Positions 7,810 to 24,363 of a stretch of DNA of 50,133 nucleotides are shown one piece after another (position 1 is the stretch's first letter; every line of letters begins with the position of its first letter). Source of the DNA: an uncultured Eubacteriales bacterium (GTDB lineage: Bacteria; Bacillota; Clostridia; Oscillospirales; Acutalibacteraceae); the NCBI GenBank assembly GCA_900314795.1, contig OMWP01000012.1, forward strand, positions 1 to 50,133, written 5' to 3'. Below the pieces are notes generated by a model. That model did no database searches and was not told the DNA's origin. It saw only the letters and a list, made by a program, of their open reading frames with translations. A program made the position numbers and the translations under genes.

Positions 7810-8454
7810 ATGGAACTGAATACTAAAATCGCAAAGGATTTATTGAAGATAAAGGCGGTGTTCTTCCGCCCTGAGGAGCCGTTCACCTGGGCGAGCGGCA
7901 TCAAAAGCCCGGTCTACTGTGACAACCGACTGACGCTCAGCGACCCTGAGGTCAGAACGGATGTGGAAGAGGGCTTAGCTGAGCTTATTAAGAATCATTA
8001 CCCCGAGGTCGAGGTGCTGATGGGTACCTCCACTGCGGGTATCGCTCACGCGGCGATCACCGCTCACCTGATGGGACTGCCGATGGGCTATGTCCGCTCC
8101 GGTCATAAGGATCACGGCAGACAGAACCAGATCGAGGGCAGACTCGAAAAGGGTCAGAAGGTCGTTGTCGTAGAGGATCTGATCTCTACCGGCGGCTCCG
8201 TGCTCGAGGTCGTCGATGTGCTCCGTGAGGCAGGCGCCGAGGTGCTGGGCATCGTGTCCATCTTCACCTACGGCATGCAGAAAGGGCTTGACCGTCTGGC
8301 TGCCGCTGACGTCAAGAACATCTCGCTGACCAACTTCGATGTGATCGCCAAGGTCGCCGCTGAGGATGGCTACATCAAGCCTGAGGACGTTGAAAGACTC
8401 ATCAAATTCCGCAACAATCCCTCTGACGAGAGTTGGATCGGAGGACAGGCATGA
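7810..8454 (+). CDS. pyrE: Orotate phosphoribosyltransferase
   Basis: Joins orotate and PRPP to give OMP. 214 residues, usual size. The PRPP-binding motif [13 protein letters not shown] lies near residue 118, and [15 protein letters not shown] is the flexible catalytic loop with conserved Lys/His residues. AAAGGAG precedes the ATG by about 10 nt. The stop overlaps the pyrB start as ATGA, a sign of coupled translation. It sits before the PyrB/PyrI pair rather than after pyrF directly, because of the repeat element. Confidence 0.95.
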
Positions 8455-9374
8455 GATCTGTTCTCGATATAGTCGATCTGTCTGTCGAAGAGCTGCAGGA
8501 GCTCATGCAGACAGCCTGCGACATCATCGACCACCCCGAAAAATATCAGGAGATCTGCAAGCACAAGAAGCTCGCGACCCTGTTTTTTGAACCCTCCACC
8601 CGTACGCGCCTGAGCTTTGAGGCGGCGATGTACGAGCTGGGCGGCAACGTGATCTCGGTATCCTCCGCGAACAACAGCTCCGCGGCAAAGGGCGAGTCCG
8701 TCGCCGATACTGCCAAAACCGTGTCTTGCTATGCGGATATCATCGCGATGCGCCACCCCAAGGAGGGCGCGGCGATGGTAGCGTCGAGAGCGGCGACTAT
8801 CCCCGTCATCAACGCCGGCGACGGCGGTCATAATCACCCGACCCAGACGCTCGCCGATCTCTTGACGATCTATCGTGAAAAAGGCAAGATGGACAATTTG
8901 ACCATCGGTCTGTGCGGTGATCTGAAATTCGGCAGAACCGTCCATTCGCTGATCAACGCAATGTCGCGTTATGAGGGCGTACGGTTTGTTCTTGTTTCTC
9001 CTGAGGAATTAAAAGTGCCGAGCTACGTGAAAAAGGACGTCCTCCAGCGCAAACGAATCCCGTATTTGCAGACGACGAGCCTCGAGGATGTTATGCCGCA
9101 GCTCGACATCCTGTATATGACGCGCGTACAGCGTGAGCGCTTCTTTAACGAGGAAGATTATCTGCGCCTCAAGGACAGCTACATCCTCACGCCGCAGAAG
9201 CTCATGACCGCAAAAGAGGATCTGTGCATCATGCATCCGCTGCCCCGCGTCAATGAGATCAGCGTCGCGATCGACGACGATCCCCGCGCTTGCTACTTCA
9301 AGCAGGTCGCGAACGGCAAATATATGCGCATGGCGCTGATATTGAAATTACTCAAGGAGGCGGGCACGATATGA
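8451..9374 (+). CDS. pyrB: Aspartate carbamoyltransferase catalytic chain
   Basis: Condenses carbamoyl phosphate and aspartate, the committed pyrimidine step. 307 residues with the carbamoyl-phosphate motif [15 protein letters not shown] near residue 47, [19 protein letters not shown], and the C-terminal [14 protein letters not shown] upstream of ATG 8451; the longer frame from 8433 would lack that site. It overlaps both neighbours by 4 bp (ATGA). With PyrI downstream it should form the regulated dodecameric enzyme. Confidence 0.96.
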
Positions 9375-9798: not shown

Positions 9799-11304
9799 AT
9801 GGCCACTTTTATCAATGAACCTGCCCATACTTTTAATGAATATCTGCTCATCCCGGGTTACTCCTCTTCGGAGTGCGTGCCCGCGAACGTCACCCTGAGA
9901 ACCCCACTTGTGAAGTACAAGAAGGGTGAAGAGAGCGCAATCACCATGAACATCCCGCTCGTATCCGCAATCATGCAGGCGGTATCCGGCGACAAACTCG
10001 CTGTAGCCCTTGCGACACAGGGCGGCGTGAGCTTCATCTACGGCTCCCAGAGCGTGGAGGACGAGGCGGCGATGGTCAGAAGAGCCAAGAGCTATAAGGC
10101 GGGCTTTGTCCAGAGTGACAGCAATATCCGTCCCGACGCAACCTTGGCGGACGTGATCGAGCTGACCGAGCGCACCGGCCACAGCACTCTCGCTGTCACC
10201 GAGGGCGGCAAGCCCGACGGAAAGCTCCTCGGCGTTGTCACCAGCCGTGACTATCGCATCAGCCGTATGGATAAATCTGAGAAGGTCGAGACCTTCATGA
10301 CCCCCTTCGATAAGCTGATCTACGCTTATGAGGGCGCGACGCTGTCCGAGTGCAACGACATTATCTGGGATCACAAGCTCAATTCTCTGCCCGTTATCTC
10401 CAAGGACGGCAAAATGAGATATTTCGTGTTCCGCAAGGACTATGACAGCCATAAGGCGAACCCCAATGAGCTGCTCGACGAGCACAAGCGCTATGTTGTC
10501 GGAGCGGGTATCAACACCCGCGACTACGCCGAGCGTGTTCCCGCGCTGATCGAGGCGGGCGCCGATGTTCTCTGTATCGATTCCTCCGAGGGCTTCTCGG
10601 AGTGGCAGAAGCTGACCATCGACTGGATCCGTGAGAACTACGGCGACAGCGTCAAGGTAGGCGCGGGCAACGTCGTTGACGCGGAGGGCTTCCGCTATCT
10701 CGCCGACTGCGGCGCCGACTTCATCAAGGTCGGTATCGGCGGCGGTTCGATCTGTATCACCCGCGAGACCAAGGGTATCGGACGCGGTCAGGCGACTGCG
10801 CTGATCGAGGTCTGTGCCGAGAGAGATAAGTATTTTGAAGAAACCGGCGTGTACATCCCCGTCTGCTCCGACGGCGGTATCGTATACGATCACCATATCA
10901 CACTGGCGCTGGCGATGGGCGCCGACTTCATCATGCTGGGCAGATACTTTGCTCGCTTTGACGAGAGCCCGTCCAACAAGGTCAGCATCAACGGTACCTA
11001 TTATAAGGAGTACTGGGGTGAGGGGTCTCAGCGCGCGAGAAACTGGCAGCGCTATGACCTCGGCGGCGACAAGAAGCTCAGCTTTGAAGAGGGCGTCGAT
11101 TCGCTCGTACCGTACGCAGGTCCGTTGAAGGACAATGTCGCGCTGTCACTTTCTAAGGTCAAGTCGACCATGTGCAACTGCGGCGCGCTGACCATCCGCG
11201 AATTACAGGAAAAGGCGAAGCTCACGCTCGTATCCGCAACCTCGATCGTCGAGGGCGGCGCGCACGACGTCATCCAGAAGGATAAGAGCTCCGCGATGAA
11301 ATAA
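9799..11304 (+). CDS. guaB: IMP dehydrogenase, Tritrichomonas-like type
   Basis: Oxidises IMP to XMP with NAD, the committed step to GTP. The 501-residue protein has a TIM barrel interrupted by a CBS pair (about 105-225). The catalytic loop [10 protein letters not shown] places Cys319, and the mobile flap NWQRYDLGG places Arg418-Tyr419. These are the same numbers as the Tritrichomonas foetus enzyme, whose sequence (from memory) it resembles over its whole length, including the N-terminal [14 protein letters not shown] and GINTRD segments. It is very unlike the common bacterial GuaB in these stretches. It sits 2 bp after pyrI, with GAAAGGAAG as ribosome binding site, so guanine-branch synthesis is coupled to the pyrimidine transcript. 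Confidence 0.95.
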
Positions 11305-11445: not shown

Positions 11446-11934
11446 ATGAAAAAAGTCGGGATCATCATGGGCTCCGACAGCGATCTGCCGATCGTCAAAA
11501 AGGCGACCGACATGCTGTCGACCCTCGACATTCCTTTTGAAGTACACGTTTATTCCGCTCACAGAACACCCGTAGAGGCTTCTGAATTTGCGAAAAATGC
11601 GCGCGCGCACGGCTTTGGCGTACTGATCGCCGCGGCGGGTATGGCGGCACACTTAGCGGGCGCGATCGCCGCAAATACCACCCTGCCTGTCATCGGCATC
11701 CCCTGCAAAGGCGGCATGATGGACGGTCTGGACGCCCTGCTCTCTACCGTACAGATGCCTACCGGTATCCCGGTAGCGACTGTCGCGCTGAACGGCGCGG
11801 CAAACGCGGCGCTTCTGGCGGCACAGATCATCGCCGTAGAAGATAAAGAGCTCGCCGCAAAGCTGGACGCAAAGCGTAAAGCAGACGCGGCAGTGGTTCT
11901 GGAGAAGGATAGAGGAATCTTAGATAGATTATAA
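11446..11934 (+). CDS. purE: 5-(carboxyamino)imidazole ribonucleotide mutase, class I-like
   Basis: 162 residues. N-terminal MGSDSDLP phosphate-binding motif and SAHRTP are the PurE signatures. The length fits class I (N5-CAIR mutase, which needs PurK), but no purK lies in the window, so whether it accepts N5-CAIR or carboxylates AIR directly cannot be settled here. GGAGG at 11436-11440 selects ATG 11446; the frame is open from 11434. Flanked on both sides by heptad-type repeat elements. Confidence 0.93.
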   Translation: MKKVGIIMGSDSDLPIVKKATDMLSTLDIPFEVHVYSAHRTPVEASEFAKNARAHGFGVLIAAAGMAAHLAGAIAANTTLPVIGIPCKGGMMDGLDALLSTVQMPTGIPVATVALNGAANAALLAAQIIAVEDKELAAKLDAKRKADAAVVLEKDRGILDRL

Positions 11935-12078: not shown

Positions 12079-13503
12079 ATGGGTGGCTTTTTCGGCATTA
12101 CGTCAACCGAAGACTGCATGATGGATGTATTCTTCGGCGTTGACTACCATTCCCATCTCGGCACACGGCGCGGCGGTCTTGCCGCTTACGATCCCGGGAT
12201 CGGCTTACAGCGCAAGATCCATAATATAGAGAACGCACCGTTCCGGACAAAATTTCAACATATTTTTGATGAGATGCAGGGCACCTCGGCGATCGGCTGT
12301 ATTTCCGACACTGATCCCCAGCCGATGCTGATCCGCTCGCATCTTGGCACCTACGCGATTTGTAACGTCGGTATCATCAACAATGCGGAGGAGCTGATCG
12401 ACAAGCACCTCAAGCATTCCTACGGACATTTTGACGCGATGACCGGCGGCAGGGTGAATTCCACCGAGCTGCTCGCAGCACTGATCGATACGCAATCGAG
12501 CTTTGCCGAGGGTATCAAGTTCGCCCAGAGCATCATCGACGGCACGCAGAATATCCTGATCCTCTTGGAGGACGGCTCACTGATCGCTGCGCGTGACAAG
12601 GTCGGTCGACTGCCTGTCTGTATCGGCAGGAGCGAGTTCGGCTATGCGGTGTCCTTTGAGAGCTACGCGTACCAGAAGCTCGGCTATGAGGACGACAGGG
12701 AGTTGGGCCCCGGCGAGATCGTCCTGCTCACGCCGACCTATCTCAAACAACTCGCAAAGCCCGGCAAGAAAAAGCGGATCTGCTCCTTTTTATGGAGCTA
12801 CTACGGTTATCCGACCTCGACCTATGAGGGTGTGAACGTCGAGTTGATGCGCTACCGCAACGGCGCGATCATGGCGCACCACGATCAGGATAATCTCGGC
12901 GACATCAACGTCGATTATGTCGGCGGTGTGCCGGATTCGGGCACACCCCACGCGATCGGTTATGCCAATGAGAGCGGTAAACCCTTCGCGCGCGCGTTCA
13001 TCAAATACACACCGACATGGTCGCGCTCCTTTATGCCGACCAATCAGACCGACCGCAACAAGATCGCGAAAATGAAGCAGATCCCTGTCTATGATCTGAT
13101 CACCGATAAAGATCTGCTCTTTGTGGATGATTCCATCGTGCGCGGCACTCAGCTCAGAGAAACGGTCGAGTTCCTGTATGAGAACGGCGCCAAGAGCGTG
13201 CACATGCGCTCGGCATGTCCGCCGATCATGTACGGCTGTAAGTACCTCAATTTTTCGCGCAATACATCCGACATGGATTTAATTGCAAGGCGTGTCATCC
13301 TCGAGCTCGAGGGGGAAGAGGGCTTCAATCATATCAAGGAGTATGCCGACGGTTCCACGACCCGCGGCAAAAACCTGAGAAAAACCATTTGCGAAAAGCT
13401 GAAATTCGATTCGCTGGATTTTCAGTCCCTCGACGGCATCGTAGAGGCGATCGGGCTCCCTAAATGCGAGCTGTGCACCTACTGCTGGGACGGCGAAGAA
13501 TAG
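12079..13503 (+). CDS. PurF-family amidophosphoribosyltransferase lacking the nucleophile Cys
   Basis: 474-residue homologue of glutamine PRPP amidotransferase, the first purine step. The N-terminus reads MGGFFGI where active PurF begins MCGIFG, so the Cys1 glutaminase nucleophile is replaced by Gly and HRGQESAG is replaced by TRRGGLAAY. The phosphoribosyltransferase half keeps the PRPP loop VDDSIVRGT at 349-357. Cysteines at RICSF, ACPPIMYGC and Cys463/466/469 near the C-terminus match positions where Bacillus PurF binds a [4Fe-4S] cluster. It may use free ammonia, take ammonia from a partner, or be regulatory. AGGGAGG precedes ATG 12079; the open frame from 11971 only reads through repeat DNA. 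Confidence 0.85.
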   Translation: MGGFFGITSTEDCMMDVFFGVDYHSHLGTRRGGLAAYDPGIGLQRKIHNIENAPFRTKFQHIFDEMQGTSAIGCISDTDPQPMLIRSHLGTYAICNVGIINNAEELIDKHLKHSYGHFDAMTGGRVNSTELLAALIDTQSSFAEGIKFAQSIIDGTQNILILLEDGSLIAARDKVGRLPVCIGRSEFGYAVSFESYAYQKLGYEDDRELGPGEIVLLTPTYLKQLAKPGKKKRICSFLWSYYGYPTSTYEGVNVELMRYRNGAIMAHHDQDNLGDINVDYVGGVPDSGTPHAIGYANESGKPFARAFIKYTPTWSRSFMPTNQTDRNKIAKMKQIPVYDLITDKDLLFVDDSIVRGTQLRETVEFLYENGAKSVHMRSACPPIMYGCKYLNFSRNTSDMDLIARRVILELEGEEGFNHIKEYADGSTTRGKNLRKTICEKLKFDSLDFQSLDGIVEAIGLPKCELCTYCWDGEE

Positions 13504-15398: not shown

Positions 15399-16118
15399 AT
15401 GAATATTTACAAAATCAACGACATCGCTGAGCTGCTCGACGGTAATACTTATCCGGGCAGAGGCATCATCATCGGCAAGACTGCCGACGGAAAAAGAGCT
15501 GTTGCTGCCTACTTCATCATGGGCAGAAGCGCCAATTCCAGAAACCGTATCTTCACCGAGCGTGACGGCGCGGTATACACCGAGCCCTTTGACGCTTCTA
15601 AGGTCGAGGATCCCTCGCTGATCATCTATGCGGCGATCCGCGAGTACGAAAATAACCTGATCGTCACCAACGGCGACCAGACCGACACCATCTATGAAGG
15701 TCTTGAAAAGGGTCTGAGCTTCAACAAAGCGCTCGAGAGCCGTGAGTTCGAGCCTGACGCGCCGAATCTCACGCCTCGTATCAGCGGCATGCTCACCTTC
15801 GAGGACGGCGACTTCACCTATCAGATGTCCATTTTGAAGTCCATCGATCCCGAGGGCAGCGACTGTGCCCGCTACGGCTTTACCTATCCTTCCAAGGCGG
15901 GCTTAGGTCACTTTATCCACACCTATGTCTGCGACGGCAACCCGATCCCGACCTTCCAGGGTGAGCCCGAGAGAGTCGCGATCGACGACGATATCGATGC
16001 TTTCACCGACAAGCTGTGGAACGCGCTGGACGAGAATAACAAGATTTCGCTGTATGTCAGAACTATCGACCTCGAGACAGGCGAAGAAGAGAACCGTCTG
16101 GTCAATAAAAACAAGTAA
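15399..16118 (+). CDS. purO: IMP cyclohydrolase, archaeal PurO-like
   Basis: Cyclises FAICAR to IMP. The 239-residue protein resembles the IMP_cyclohyd family (archaeal PurO), not the cyclohydrolase half of bacterial PurH. It shows YPGRGIIIGKTADGKRAVAAY near residue 16, then YFIMGRSANSRNR, and a C-terminal GLGHFIHTYVCDG segment. AAAGGGGAG precedes ATG 15399. It is next to a free-standing AICAR transformylase, the expected partner for the preceding step, which supports the assignment. Confidence 0.88.
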   Translation: MNIYKINDIAELLDGNTYPGRGIIIGKTADGKRAVAAYFIMGRSANSRNRIFTERDGAVYTEPFDASKVEDPSLIIYAAIREYENNLIVTNGDQTDTIYEGLEKGLSFNKALESREFEPDAPNLTPRISGMLTFEDGDFTYQMSILKSIDPEGSDCARYGFTYPSKAGLGHFIHTYVCDGNPIPTFQGEPERVAIDDDIDAFTDKLWNALDENNKISLYVRTIDLETGEEENRLVNKNK

Positions 16119-16388: not shown

Positions 16389-17573
16389 ATGAAAGAATTT
16401 GAGTTAAAATACGGTTGCAACCCCAACCAGAAACCCGCAAAGATCTTTATGCACGACGGCTCCGATCTTCCGATCGAGATTCTGTGCGGCAGACCCGGCT
16501 ACATCAACTTCCTCGACGCGTTCAATTCATGGCAGCTCGTCAAGGAGCTCAAAGAGGCGCTCGGACTGCCTGCCGTCACCTCGTTCAAGCATGTCAGCCC
16601 CACCTCGGCGGCTGTCGGCGTACCGCTTTCCGATAAGCTCAAGAAGGCTTGCTTCGTCGACGACATCGAGGGTCTGGATGATTCTCCGCTCGCCTGCGCT
16701 TACGCGCGTGCACGCGGTACCGACCGTATGTGCTCCTTCGGCGACTGGGTCGCGCTGAGTGACGTCTGCGATGTTACCACCGCGAAGATGATCCAGCGTG
16801 AGGTAAGTGACGGCATCATCGCCCCCGGCTATGAGCCCGAGGCGCTCGAGATCCTCAAATCCAAGAGAAAAGGCAACTACAATATCGTACAGATCGACCC
16901 GAACTATGTGCCTGATCCCGTTGAGCATAAGCAGGTCTACGGCATCACCTTTGAGCAGGGTCGCAATAACTTTGAGATCAACCGCGCACTGCTCGAAAAT
17001 ATCGTGACAAAGAACAAGGAACTGCCCGAGAGCGCGGTGCGTGATCTGATCATCTCCCTGATCACCCTCAAATATACCCAGTCTAACTCCGTTTGCTACG
17101 CGGTAGACGGTCAGGCGATCGGCGTCGGCGCGGGTCAGCAGAGCCGTATCCACTGCACCCGTCTGGCGGGCTCTAAGGCGGACACCTGGTTCCTCAGACA
17201 GAGTGACAAGGTGCTGAACCTCCCGTTCCGCGAGGATATCCGCCGTCCCGACCGCGACAACGTCATCGACGGTTATATCAACCGCAACGAAGAGGATGTT
17301 ACCGCTGACGGCAACTGGCAGAAGTATTTCACCGAGCAGCCCGCTCCCTTCACCGATGAGGAGCAGAGAGCGTACCTCGACACCATCGACAACGTCGCGC
17401 TCGGTTCGGACGCGTTCTTCCCGTTCTCCGACAATATCGAGAGAGCGTATAAGAGCGGCGTCAAATATATCGCGGAGCCCGGCGGCTCCATCCGTGATGA
17501 CGCTGTCATCGACTGCTGCGACAAGTACGGCATGGCGATGGCGTTCACCGGCATGAGATTGTTCCACCACTAA
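16389..17573 (+). CDS. purH: Stand-alone AICAR transformylase (human ATIC-like)
   Basis: Formylates AICAR to FAICAR. 394 residues covering only the transformylase part of PurH; the N-terminal MGS-like cyclohydrolase domain is absent and supplied by the upstream PurO. The catalytic Lys-His lies in SFKHVSPTSAAVG (near residue 60), and QSNSVCYA plus GAGQQSRIHCTRLAG are present. These stretches read like the eukaryotic ATIC enzyme rather than typical bacterial PurH (KHANPCG). ATG 16389 follows AAAGGAG. The frame is open back to 16131, but that part is repeat DNA. Confidence 0.92.
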   Translation: MKEFELKYGCNPNQKPAKIFMHDGSDLPIEILCGRPGYINFLDAFNSWQLVKELKEALGLPAVTSFKHVSPTSAAVGVPLSDKLKKACFVDDIEGLDDSPLACAYARARGTDRMCSFGDWVALSDVCDVTTAKMIQREVSDGIIAPGYEPEALEILKSKRKGNYNIVQIDPNYVPDPVEHKQVYGITFEQGRNNFEINRALLENIVTKNKELPESAVRDLIISLITLKYTQSNSVCYAVDGQAIGVGAGQQSRIHCTRLAGSKADTWFLRQSDKVLNLPFREDIRRPDRDNVIDGYINRNEEDVTADGNWQKYFTEQPAPFTDEEQRAYLDTIDNVALGSDAFFPFSDNIERAYKSGVKYIAEPGGSIRDDAVIDCCDKYGMAMAFTGMRLFHH

Positions 17574-24089: not shown

Positions 24090-24363
24090 TGCGTGACTGC
24101 ACAAGATATGCGATGAAGCGGGAGGTTGCAACGCAAAAGCGTTGGTTTTTCCGTGGAGTATGTCCGATTTTAAACCGGGCGAAAGAATAGTTTGAGCTTT
24201 TGATGACATTGGGGTTGCTATGTCATTACTGCGCCACTGTGCTTCCGGTTGCCGAAACTCGGCTATCGGCTTTTTTAACGGATGGGGTAGGAACACCCGG
24301 ACGGGTGTTTGGAAAGTGAGAACGAAATGTCGCGCCCAACCAATATGATTAGGAGGCGAAGAT
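24090..24363 (+). promoter_or_regulatory. S10 operon leader with terminator-like hairpins
   Basis: Three stem-loops are visible. CAACGC-AAAA-GCGTTG (24129-24144) is followed by GTTTTT. GCCGA (24251-24255) with TCGGC (24266-24270) is followed by six T (24271-24276); GCCGA can also pair with the nearer TCGGC at 24259-24263. AACACCC-GGAC-GGGTGTT lies at 24292-24309. The first two look like intrinsic terminators, so the operon may be controlled by attenuation. Known Gram-negative S10 control uses L4, but nothing here identifies the ligand. Confidence 0.55.

What the first reader, a model, noticed from the sequence alone, without database searches (positions are those of the whole stretch)
9799..11304. 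Tritrichomonas-type IMP dehydrogenase in a bacterial pyr-pur cluster
Seen: catalytic Cys falls at residue 319 and the flap Arg-Tyr at 418-419, exactly the numbers used for the Tritrichomonas foetus enzyme, with matching N-terminus, [15 protein letters not shown] and near-equal length. Known: the parasite enzyme is divergent and thought to be of bacterial origin. Inference: this clade of Clostridia may hold the donor lineage.
Basis: partly seen in the sequence, partly recalled or inferred. Interest (0 to 1): 0.75.

Follow-up and report, generated by a model that had tools for sequence, protein, structure and literature searches.

The report
Parasite-type IMP dehydrogenase native to Clostridia
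A gut bacterium's only IMP dehydrogenase, a key enzyme for making guanine nucleotides, is the same unusual form as the long-studied enzyme of the cattle parasite Tritrichomonas foetus, and relatives occur in many bacteria, so the parasite most likely took its gene from a bacterium, though not demonstrably from this lineage.

Summary
Observation confirmed. The 501-aa ORF at 9799-11304 (+) aligns to T. foetus IMPDH over 496 residues without a gap, 71.8% identical; 22 ordinary GuaB are 33-38% identical to it. It is the only PF00478 match found in its genome.

It belongs to a curated bacterial family, NF005493/PRK07107 (958 bits, cut-off 585), over cut-off in 48 of 398 genomes sampled from the phylum. 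In 38 of those 48 no ordinary GuaB reaches its cut-off. Relatives occur in Listeria, Parabacteroides and, more distantly, Actinomycetota.

T. foetus falls in this family, apart from GuaB (100/100). Within it, T. foetus sits between two bacterial subclades, outside the one holding the window (92/94; catalytic core 99/92). A sister relation to the wider window clade is not rejected (p 0.389), and identity does not decide: 74% at best elsewhere, 73.4% in the window's clade.

'Tritrichomonas-type' is shown and 'bacterial origin' is likely; 'this clade is the donor' is not supported. I found no explicit statement of the transfer in the papers searched.

The parts
9799..11304 (+). T. foetus-type IMP dehydrogenase (NF005493 / PRK07107), 501 aa; the only PF00478 match found in the genome
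   Evidence: 958 bits to NF005493 (cut-off 585), 348 bits to the ordinary-IMPDH model TIGR01302 (cut-off 481.5); single PF00478 place in the genome
10753..10761 (+). Cys319-Ile320-Thr321: catalytic Cys and Thr321 of the second water-activation path
   Evidence: gapless alignment to T. foetus; roles from PMC2525682 passages
11050..11055 (+). Arg418-Tyr419 flap dyad, within NWQRYDLGG
10099..10461 (+). Bateman (CBS) part, residues 101-221 by alignment; least conserved part (54% to T. foetus)
   Evidence: Pfam CBS match at residues 110-151; identity by region; borders chosen by me
8451..9374 (+). pyrB, aspartate carbamoyltransferase catalytic chain (context)
   Evidence: PF02729, PF00185
9371..9796 (+). 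pyrI, aspartate carbamoyltransferase regulatory chain; two bases lie between its stop and the IMPDH start
   Evidence: PF01948, PF02748; start read from the ORF
11446..11934 (+). purE, AIR carboxylase (context)
   Evidence: PF00731; start read from the ORF
12079..13503 (+). divergent PurF-like protein (160 bits to TIGR01134, cut-off 350)
15399..16118 (+). PurO-like IMP cyclohydrolase (PF07826 over cut-off), below both NCBIfam IMP cyclohydrolase cut-offs
16389..17573 (+). stand-alone AICAR formyltransferase, NF005492 / PRK07106 (696 bits, cut-off 415)

Best explanation
This is the working IMP dehydrogenase, the only one found, of a Clostridia bacterium. It belongs to a bacterial IMPDH family (NF005493/PRK07107) separate from ordinary GuaB, to which the T. 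foetus enzyme also belongs. It should catalyse IMP + NAD+ + H2O -> XMP + NADH as the T. foetus enzyme does: Cys319 attacks C2 of IMP, hydride goes to NAD+, the flap carrying Arg418-Tyr419 closes into the vacated NAD site, and Arg418 (or the Thr321-Glu431 relay) activates water to release XMP. It is probably co-transcribed with pyrimidine and purine biosynthesis genes. Evolutionary reading: the family is bacterial and common in Clostridia. The Tritrichomonas lineage acquired its IMPDH from a member of it by lateral transfer; the donor lies near the split of two bacterial subclades and is not identified, and the window's own clade is not favoured. Shown: family membership, residue identity, single copy, tree position apart from GuaB. 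Inferred: enzymatic activity, co-transcription, direction of transfer.
For: 71.8% identity to T. foetus without gaps, against 33-38% to 22 ordinary GuaB. NF005493 958 bits against TIGR01302 348 bits, below cut-off. Scores over the phylum are bimodal: the 48 genomes over cut-off have 832-998 bits (one of them a 652-bit fragment), the next best match is 364. Family including T. foetus split from GuaB at 100/100. E408 in 170 of 170 family members and M in 22 of 22 GuaB; Cys319, Thr321, Arg418, Tyr419 and Glu431 in 170 of 170. One PF00478 match in the genome, and two loci over the GMP synthase N-terminal cut-off to take XMP onward. 38 of 48 genomes with this type have no GuaB over the TIGR01302 cut-off, in 16 of 20 families. 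T. foetus lies between two all-bacterial subclades.
Against: No activity was tested. T. foetus as sister to all bacterial members is not rejected (p 0.101), so nesting among bacteria, and hence direction, rests on parsimony and breadth of distribution. The GuaB outgroup branch is very long (about 10 changes per column in all), so the root is unreliable, and T. foetus is itself a long branch (0.37-0.71). Without subclade A it has no supported neighbour. Only one eukaryotic sequence of the type was available; no eukaryotic genome collection could be searched.
Confidence: 0.84

Rival explanations
1. The window's own clade (gut Clostridia, many titled Ruminococcaceae or Oscillospiraceae) is the donor lineage of the T. 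foetus gene.
For: Identity is as high as anywhere to within a percent: 71.8% for the window, up to 73.4% for L020 and L054, against 74% at best elsewhere. Sister relation to the wider 17-row clade not rejected (p 0.389), nor to the 11-row clade in the first set (p 0.504, likelihood 0.30 higher). Many relatives come from animal guts by their titles.
Against: T. foetus is outside the clade in all four trees. The T. foetus + subclade A split has support 92/94 and 99/92 on the core. The 12-row clade is borderline rejected with wider sampling (likelihood 44.27 lower, p 0.049).
Confidence: 0.1
2. The transfer ran the other way, or the type is ancient: a eukaryotic (or pre-divergence) paralogue from which bacteria received it.
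For: T. foetus as sister to all bacterial members is not rejected (p 0.101).
Against: The type is in 169 distinct sampled genomes (48, 110 more, 11 more) and in records of three bacterial phyla, often as the only IMPDH. Human and fungal IMPDHs in the PDB list score at most 228 bits against the window protein, under most full-length bacterial GuaB there (60 of 80 rows seen; organisms recalled).
Confidence: 0.05
3. It is an ordinary GuaB and the shared residue numbers are a coincidence or convergence.
For: The catalytic residues Cys, Thr, Arg, Tyr, Glu are shared with GuaB.
Against: 33-38% against 72% identity, colinearity, family scores and the 100/100 split.
Confidence: 0.01

Closest known systems
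Tritrichomonas foetus IMP dehydrogenase (PDB 1ak5, 1mew and others)
   Same: colinear over 496 aa, 71.8% identity, catalytic, flap and K310/E431 residues
   Different: eukaryotic host; Bateman part only 54% identical; lies outside the window's subclade; position 411 S instead of Q
NCBIfam NF005493 (PRK07107) IMP dehydrogenase
   Same: full-length match, 958 bits against a cut-off of 585: the window protein is a plain member
   Different: nothing that sets it apart; the family model predates this work
Listeria Lmo0132 (PDB 8ebc; organism recalled) and L. monocytogenes WP_003721759
   Same: same family; the L. monocytogenes protein is 74.6% identical
   Different: stands among unrelated genes. 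That Listeria also has an ordinary GuaB is recalled; one search shows two places in one 2.9-Mb Listeria record and ordinary-type pieces in Listeria phage-labelled records
Ordinary bacterial GuaB (TIGR01302)
   Same: same superfamily, reaction and catalytic Cys, Thr, Arg, Tyr, Glu431
   Different: 33-38% identity, M instead of E at 408, Cys at 294-300 of the aligned segments, other loop motif; the window protein is under its cut-off (348 of 481.5 bits)
Cryptosporidium IMPDH, a documented bacterial transfer (PMC545779, passages read)
   Same: a parasite IMPDH of bacterial origin
   Different: stated there to come from epsilon-proteobacteria, so an independent event; that it is of the ordinary GuaB type is recalled

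Membership tests
NF005493 / PRK07107 IMP dehydrogenase (T. foetus type) | score over the curated cut-off, full length | tested here: met
   957.7 bits (cut-off 585), residues 1-499 on 1-499/502
NF005493 / PRK07107 IMP dehydrogenase (T. foetus type) | clade with T. foetus apart from GuaB | tested here: met
   100/100
NF005493 / PRK07107 IMP dehydrogenase (T. foetus type) | IMPDH catalytic residues Cys319, Thr321, Arg418, Tyr419, Glu431 | tested here: met
NF005493 / PRK07107 IMP dehydrogenase (T. foetus type) | IMP -> XMP activity | not testable with these tools
   inferred from identity to the assayed T. foetus enzyme
Ordinary GuaB (TIGR01302) | score over cut-off 481.5 | tested here: not met
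   347.8 bits
Donor clade of the T. foetus gene | T. foetus nests in or is supported sister to the window's clade | tested here: inconclusive
   not so in any of four trees; AU p 0.504, 0.389 and 0.0492 depending on set and clade
Lateral transfer from bacteria to Tritrichomonas | T. foetus nested inside bacterial sequences under a secure root | tested here: inconclusive
   between two bacterial subclades, but T. foetus outside all bacteria has p 0.101

The most novel reading that the evidence does not exclude
The T. foetus-type IMPDH is one part of an alternative late-purine gene set of Clostridia (divergent PurF, PurO-like IMP cyclohydrolase, stand-alone AICAR formyltransferase PRK07106, IMPDH PRK07107) that replaces the ordinary PurH/GuaB set, and the Tritrichomonas lineage took its IMPDH from a bacterium carrying such a set. 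The enzyme on which much of the IMPDH flap mechanism was worked out would then be a Clostridia-type enzyme living in a eukaryote. Supporting lead: PRK07106 is over cut-off in 26 of 48 genomes with this IMPDH and in 34 of 350 without, not corrected for relatedness. Against it: 22 of 48 lack PRK07106; G378, of the window's own family, has PRK07106 without this IMPDH; absence of PurH was not tested.
Probability: 0.3. Interest if true: 0.55.

Novelty: new member of a known kind. Interest (0 to 1): 0.42.

Why it matters
T. foetus IMPDH is a reference enzyme for IMPDH mechanism and inhibitor work (passages) and is discussed there as a parasite enzyme. These results put it in a bacterial family that is often the only IMPDH of Clostridia, which makes its transfer testable by adding other parabasalids. 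By inference, inhibitors aimed at it might also hit gut bacteria that carry the type. The family and its IMPDH label are already curated, so the gain is the evolutionary placement and the distribution, not a new enzyme.

Tried and rejected
Rejected: coincidence of residue numbers (gapless 71.8% identity); ordinary GuaB; the window clade as demonstrated donor. Listeria looked closest to T. foetus in the plasmid list (71.9%), but other Clostridia reach 74%. On checking this report I found that relatives in the window's clade reach 73.4%, so identity does not speak against that clade; for this I moved the donor rival from 0.08 to 0.10 and the main reading from 0.85 to 0.84. Led nowhere: viral-contig scan with the T. 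foetus protein, 1 candidate stretch, 0 relatives; Rfam scan, 1 match in the window, far from the gene. Papers: nine word searches did not surface a statement that the T. foetus gene is a lateral acquisition. I read passages only, in eight papers: PMC2525682, PMC4342496, PMC3469657, PMC12959148, PMC12428144, PMC545779, PMC10912719, PMC6336804; of the others I saw listings. PMC2525682 has a Bayesian tree in Fig. S4 (not held), built after BLAST searches with T. foetus IMPDH, and PMC12959148 has a phylogenetic analysis with T. foetus among its retrieved sequences, so the placement may be visible there. PMC365759, PMC2737513 and DOI 10.1021/bi900028u are not held. Two AU tests (T. foetus with the Listeria pair; T. 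foetus with L083 and L087) did not finish and were not repeated. Rows left out of trees: fragments L009, L012, L057, L129, L160, L173, L174, L175; near-duplicates; 16 of 22 GuaB from the 72-row tree; in the 69-row tree all GuaB, the Actinomycetota rows and L128 (long branches). Of the 113 genomes with a match, only the 30 best by score were fetched.

Full report
What is there. The window holds an uninterrupted 501-codon ORF at 9799-11304 (+), starting with ATG. It is the only place in the 2.53-Mb, 99.75% complete genome that matches PF00478 at E <= 0.001. Against the sequences of the PDB its best match is T. foetus IMPDH (1ak5/1mew, 830 bits, residues 1-496 on 1-496), then 8ebc, Lmo0132 (692 bits). 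The first other IMPDH (1vrd, Thermotoga as I recall) scores 280 bits and human IMPDH 1 about 226 bits. BLASTP against T. foetus gives 71.8% identity over 496 residues with no gap. Of 18 sites checked, 17 are identical; 411 differs. Identity is 82-85% in residues 222-435 and 54% in the Bateman part.

Family. NCBIfam assigns the protein to NF005493 (PRK07107, IMP dehydrogenase, 958 bits against a cut-off of 585). The ordinary IMPDH model TIGR01302 gives 348 bits, below its cut-off of 481.5. In 398 genomes drawn from the phylum, 48 have a match over the NF005493 cut-off: 47 at 832-998 bits, and one fragment at 652. The next best match is 364, so the two types are cleanly separate. None of the 14 control genomes is over the cut-off. 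In the window's class, 113 of 291 genomes have a match to T. foetus IMPDH at E <= 1e-140; in the order of G232, 15 of 21 do. Together this makes 169 distinct genomes. The 80 kept all bear titles of Clostridia, many from animal guts, 81-99% identical; the other 498 were not seen. In plasmid-labelled records the type occurs in Subdoligranulum, Monoglobus, Listeria and Parabacteroides (67-75% to the window protein) and, at 47-52%, in Streptomyces, Embleya and Mycolicibacterium (regions). The Parabacteroides copy lies among genes such as TonB-dependent receptor and RagB/SusD, so it looks native there.

Sole or second enzyme. Of the 48 phylum genomes with this type, 10 also have an ordinary IMPDH over the TIGR01302 cut-off and 38 do not. 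These 38 fall in 16 of the 20 families. Two caveats: G041 is only 75% complete and its hit is a fragment, and G064 has a second, shorter IMPDH/GMPR-like protein (398 aa frame, 197 bits, below cut-off). So this is a housekeeping IMPDH in many Clostridia rather than an accessory gene.

Residue signatures. In 170 distinct full-length family members (of 176 distinct, 183 loci, the window's own copy included), Cys319, Thr321, Lys310, Arg418, Tyr419 and Glu431 are invariant and position 408 is Glu. In 22 ordinary GuaB position 408 is Met. The Cys carries number 319 in 152 of 170, against 294-300 in the 22 GuaB, counted on the aligned segments (the true GuaB numbers are somewhat higher). GINTRD is in 146 of 170 and NWQRYDLGG in 116 of 170, both in 0 of 22 GuaB.

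Trees. With 72 rows including six GuaB, all T. foetus-type proteins with T. foetus form one group (100/100), and T. foetus does not join the window's 11-row clade (80/79 with another group). With 69 rows, wider sampling and no long-branch rows, T. foetus attaches between subclade A (15 rows, including Parabacteroides) and subclade B (53 rows, including the window): A is 100/99, A plus T. foetus 92/94. On the catalytic core alone A plus T. foetus is 99/92. With A removed, T. foetus has no supported neighbour. AU tests are mixed. T. foetus plus the 11-row window clade in the 72-row set: p 0.504, likelihood 0.30 higher than the free tree. T. foetus plus a 12-row window clade in the 69-row set: likelihood 44.27 lower, p 0.049, an odd pair of values that I take as borderline. 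T. foetus plus the 17-row wider clade: p 0.389. All bacterial members together without T. foetus: p 0.101. Two further tests did not finish. The best sampled bacterial identity to T. foetus is 74% (G538, G622, G232); among the window protein's close relatives L020 and L054 reach 73.4%, so identity does not decide. Conclusion: bacterial family yes, donor lineage unresolved, window's clade not favoured by the trees.

Neighbourhood. Upstream lie pyrK, pyrD, pyrF, pyrE, pyrB and pyrI, all on the + strand, with two bases between the pyrI stop and the IMPDH start. Downstream lie purE, a divergent PurF-like protein, purM, purN, a PurO-like IMP cyclohydrolase and a stand-alone AICAR formyltransferase (purM and purN named from the ORF sequence, not scanned). 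Among the 80 relatives, pyrB starts within 1.6 kb upstream in 44 of 74 with enough sequence, purE within 2.5 kb downstream in 24 of 62, both in 21 of 58, neither in 25 of 58. In six plasmid-record loci no such neighbour matched, though one of them (L154) has only 0.4 kb downstream. The cluster is thus a feature of part of the window's relatives; for the rest of the family it was not surveyed.

Mechanism. By identity with the assayed T. foetus enzyme: Cys319 forms the covalent intermediate, the Arg418-Tyr419 flap closes and activates water, with Thr321-Glu431 as a second path (passages of PMC2525682; the order of steps partly recalled). K310 and E431, named in PMC3469657 as the pair behind T. 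foetus mycophenolic acid resistance (passages), are conserved, but they are also in 22 of 22 GuaB, so they are not diagnostic. Activity here is inferred, not shown.

Known or new. The family is curated and has a solved bacterial member, so the protein is a new member of a known kind. Bacterial transfer of IMPDH to a parasite is documented for Cryptosporidium, from a different source (PMC545779, passages). I found no explicit statement for T. foetus in nine word searches, but key subscription papers are not held, and Fig. S4 of PMC2525682 may show it.

A lead. The stand-alone AICAR formyltransferase PRK07106 is over cut-off in 26 of 48 genomes with this IMPDH and in 34 of 350 without (Fisher p 6e-12, not corrected for relatedness). 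Against a tight set: 22 of 48 lack it, and G378, of the window's own family, has it without this IMPDH. An alternative late-purine gene set is possible but not shown.

Noticed in passing
window 15399-16118 and 16389-17573: IMP synthesis genes are split into a PurO-like IMP cyclohydrolase (PF07826; below the NCBIfam IMP cyclohydrolase cut-offs) and a stand-alone AICAR formyltransferase (NF005492) instead of the bifunctional PurH.
   Followed up: partly
window 12079-13503: PurF-like protein that is far below the purF equivalog cut-off (160 of 350 bits) beside purE; possibly a divergent amidophosphoribosyltransferase or something else.
   Followed up: no
G000:C57:3738-4301 and G000:C13:6389-6952 (L206, L207): Two loci in the same genome score over the GMP synthase N-terminal cut-off (232 and 196 bits).
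   Followed up: no
window 24105-24182: S10-Clostridia ribosomal protein leader (RF03136, 49.9 bits), the only Rfam match over threshold in the window.
   Followed up: no
L156-L159 (Mycolicibacterium, Streptomyces, Embleya replicons): Divergent T. foetus-type IMPDHs on actinobacterial plasmid records, one (Streptomyces sp. NBC_00582) near asnB and an adenylation-domain protein; could be a self-resistance or second IMPDH copy.
   Followed up: no
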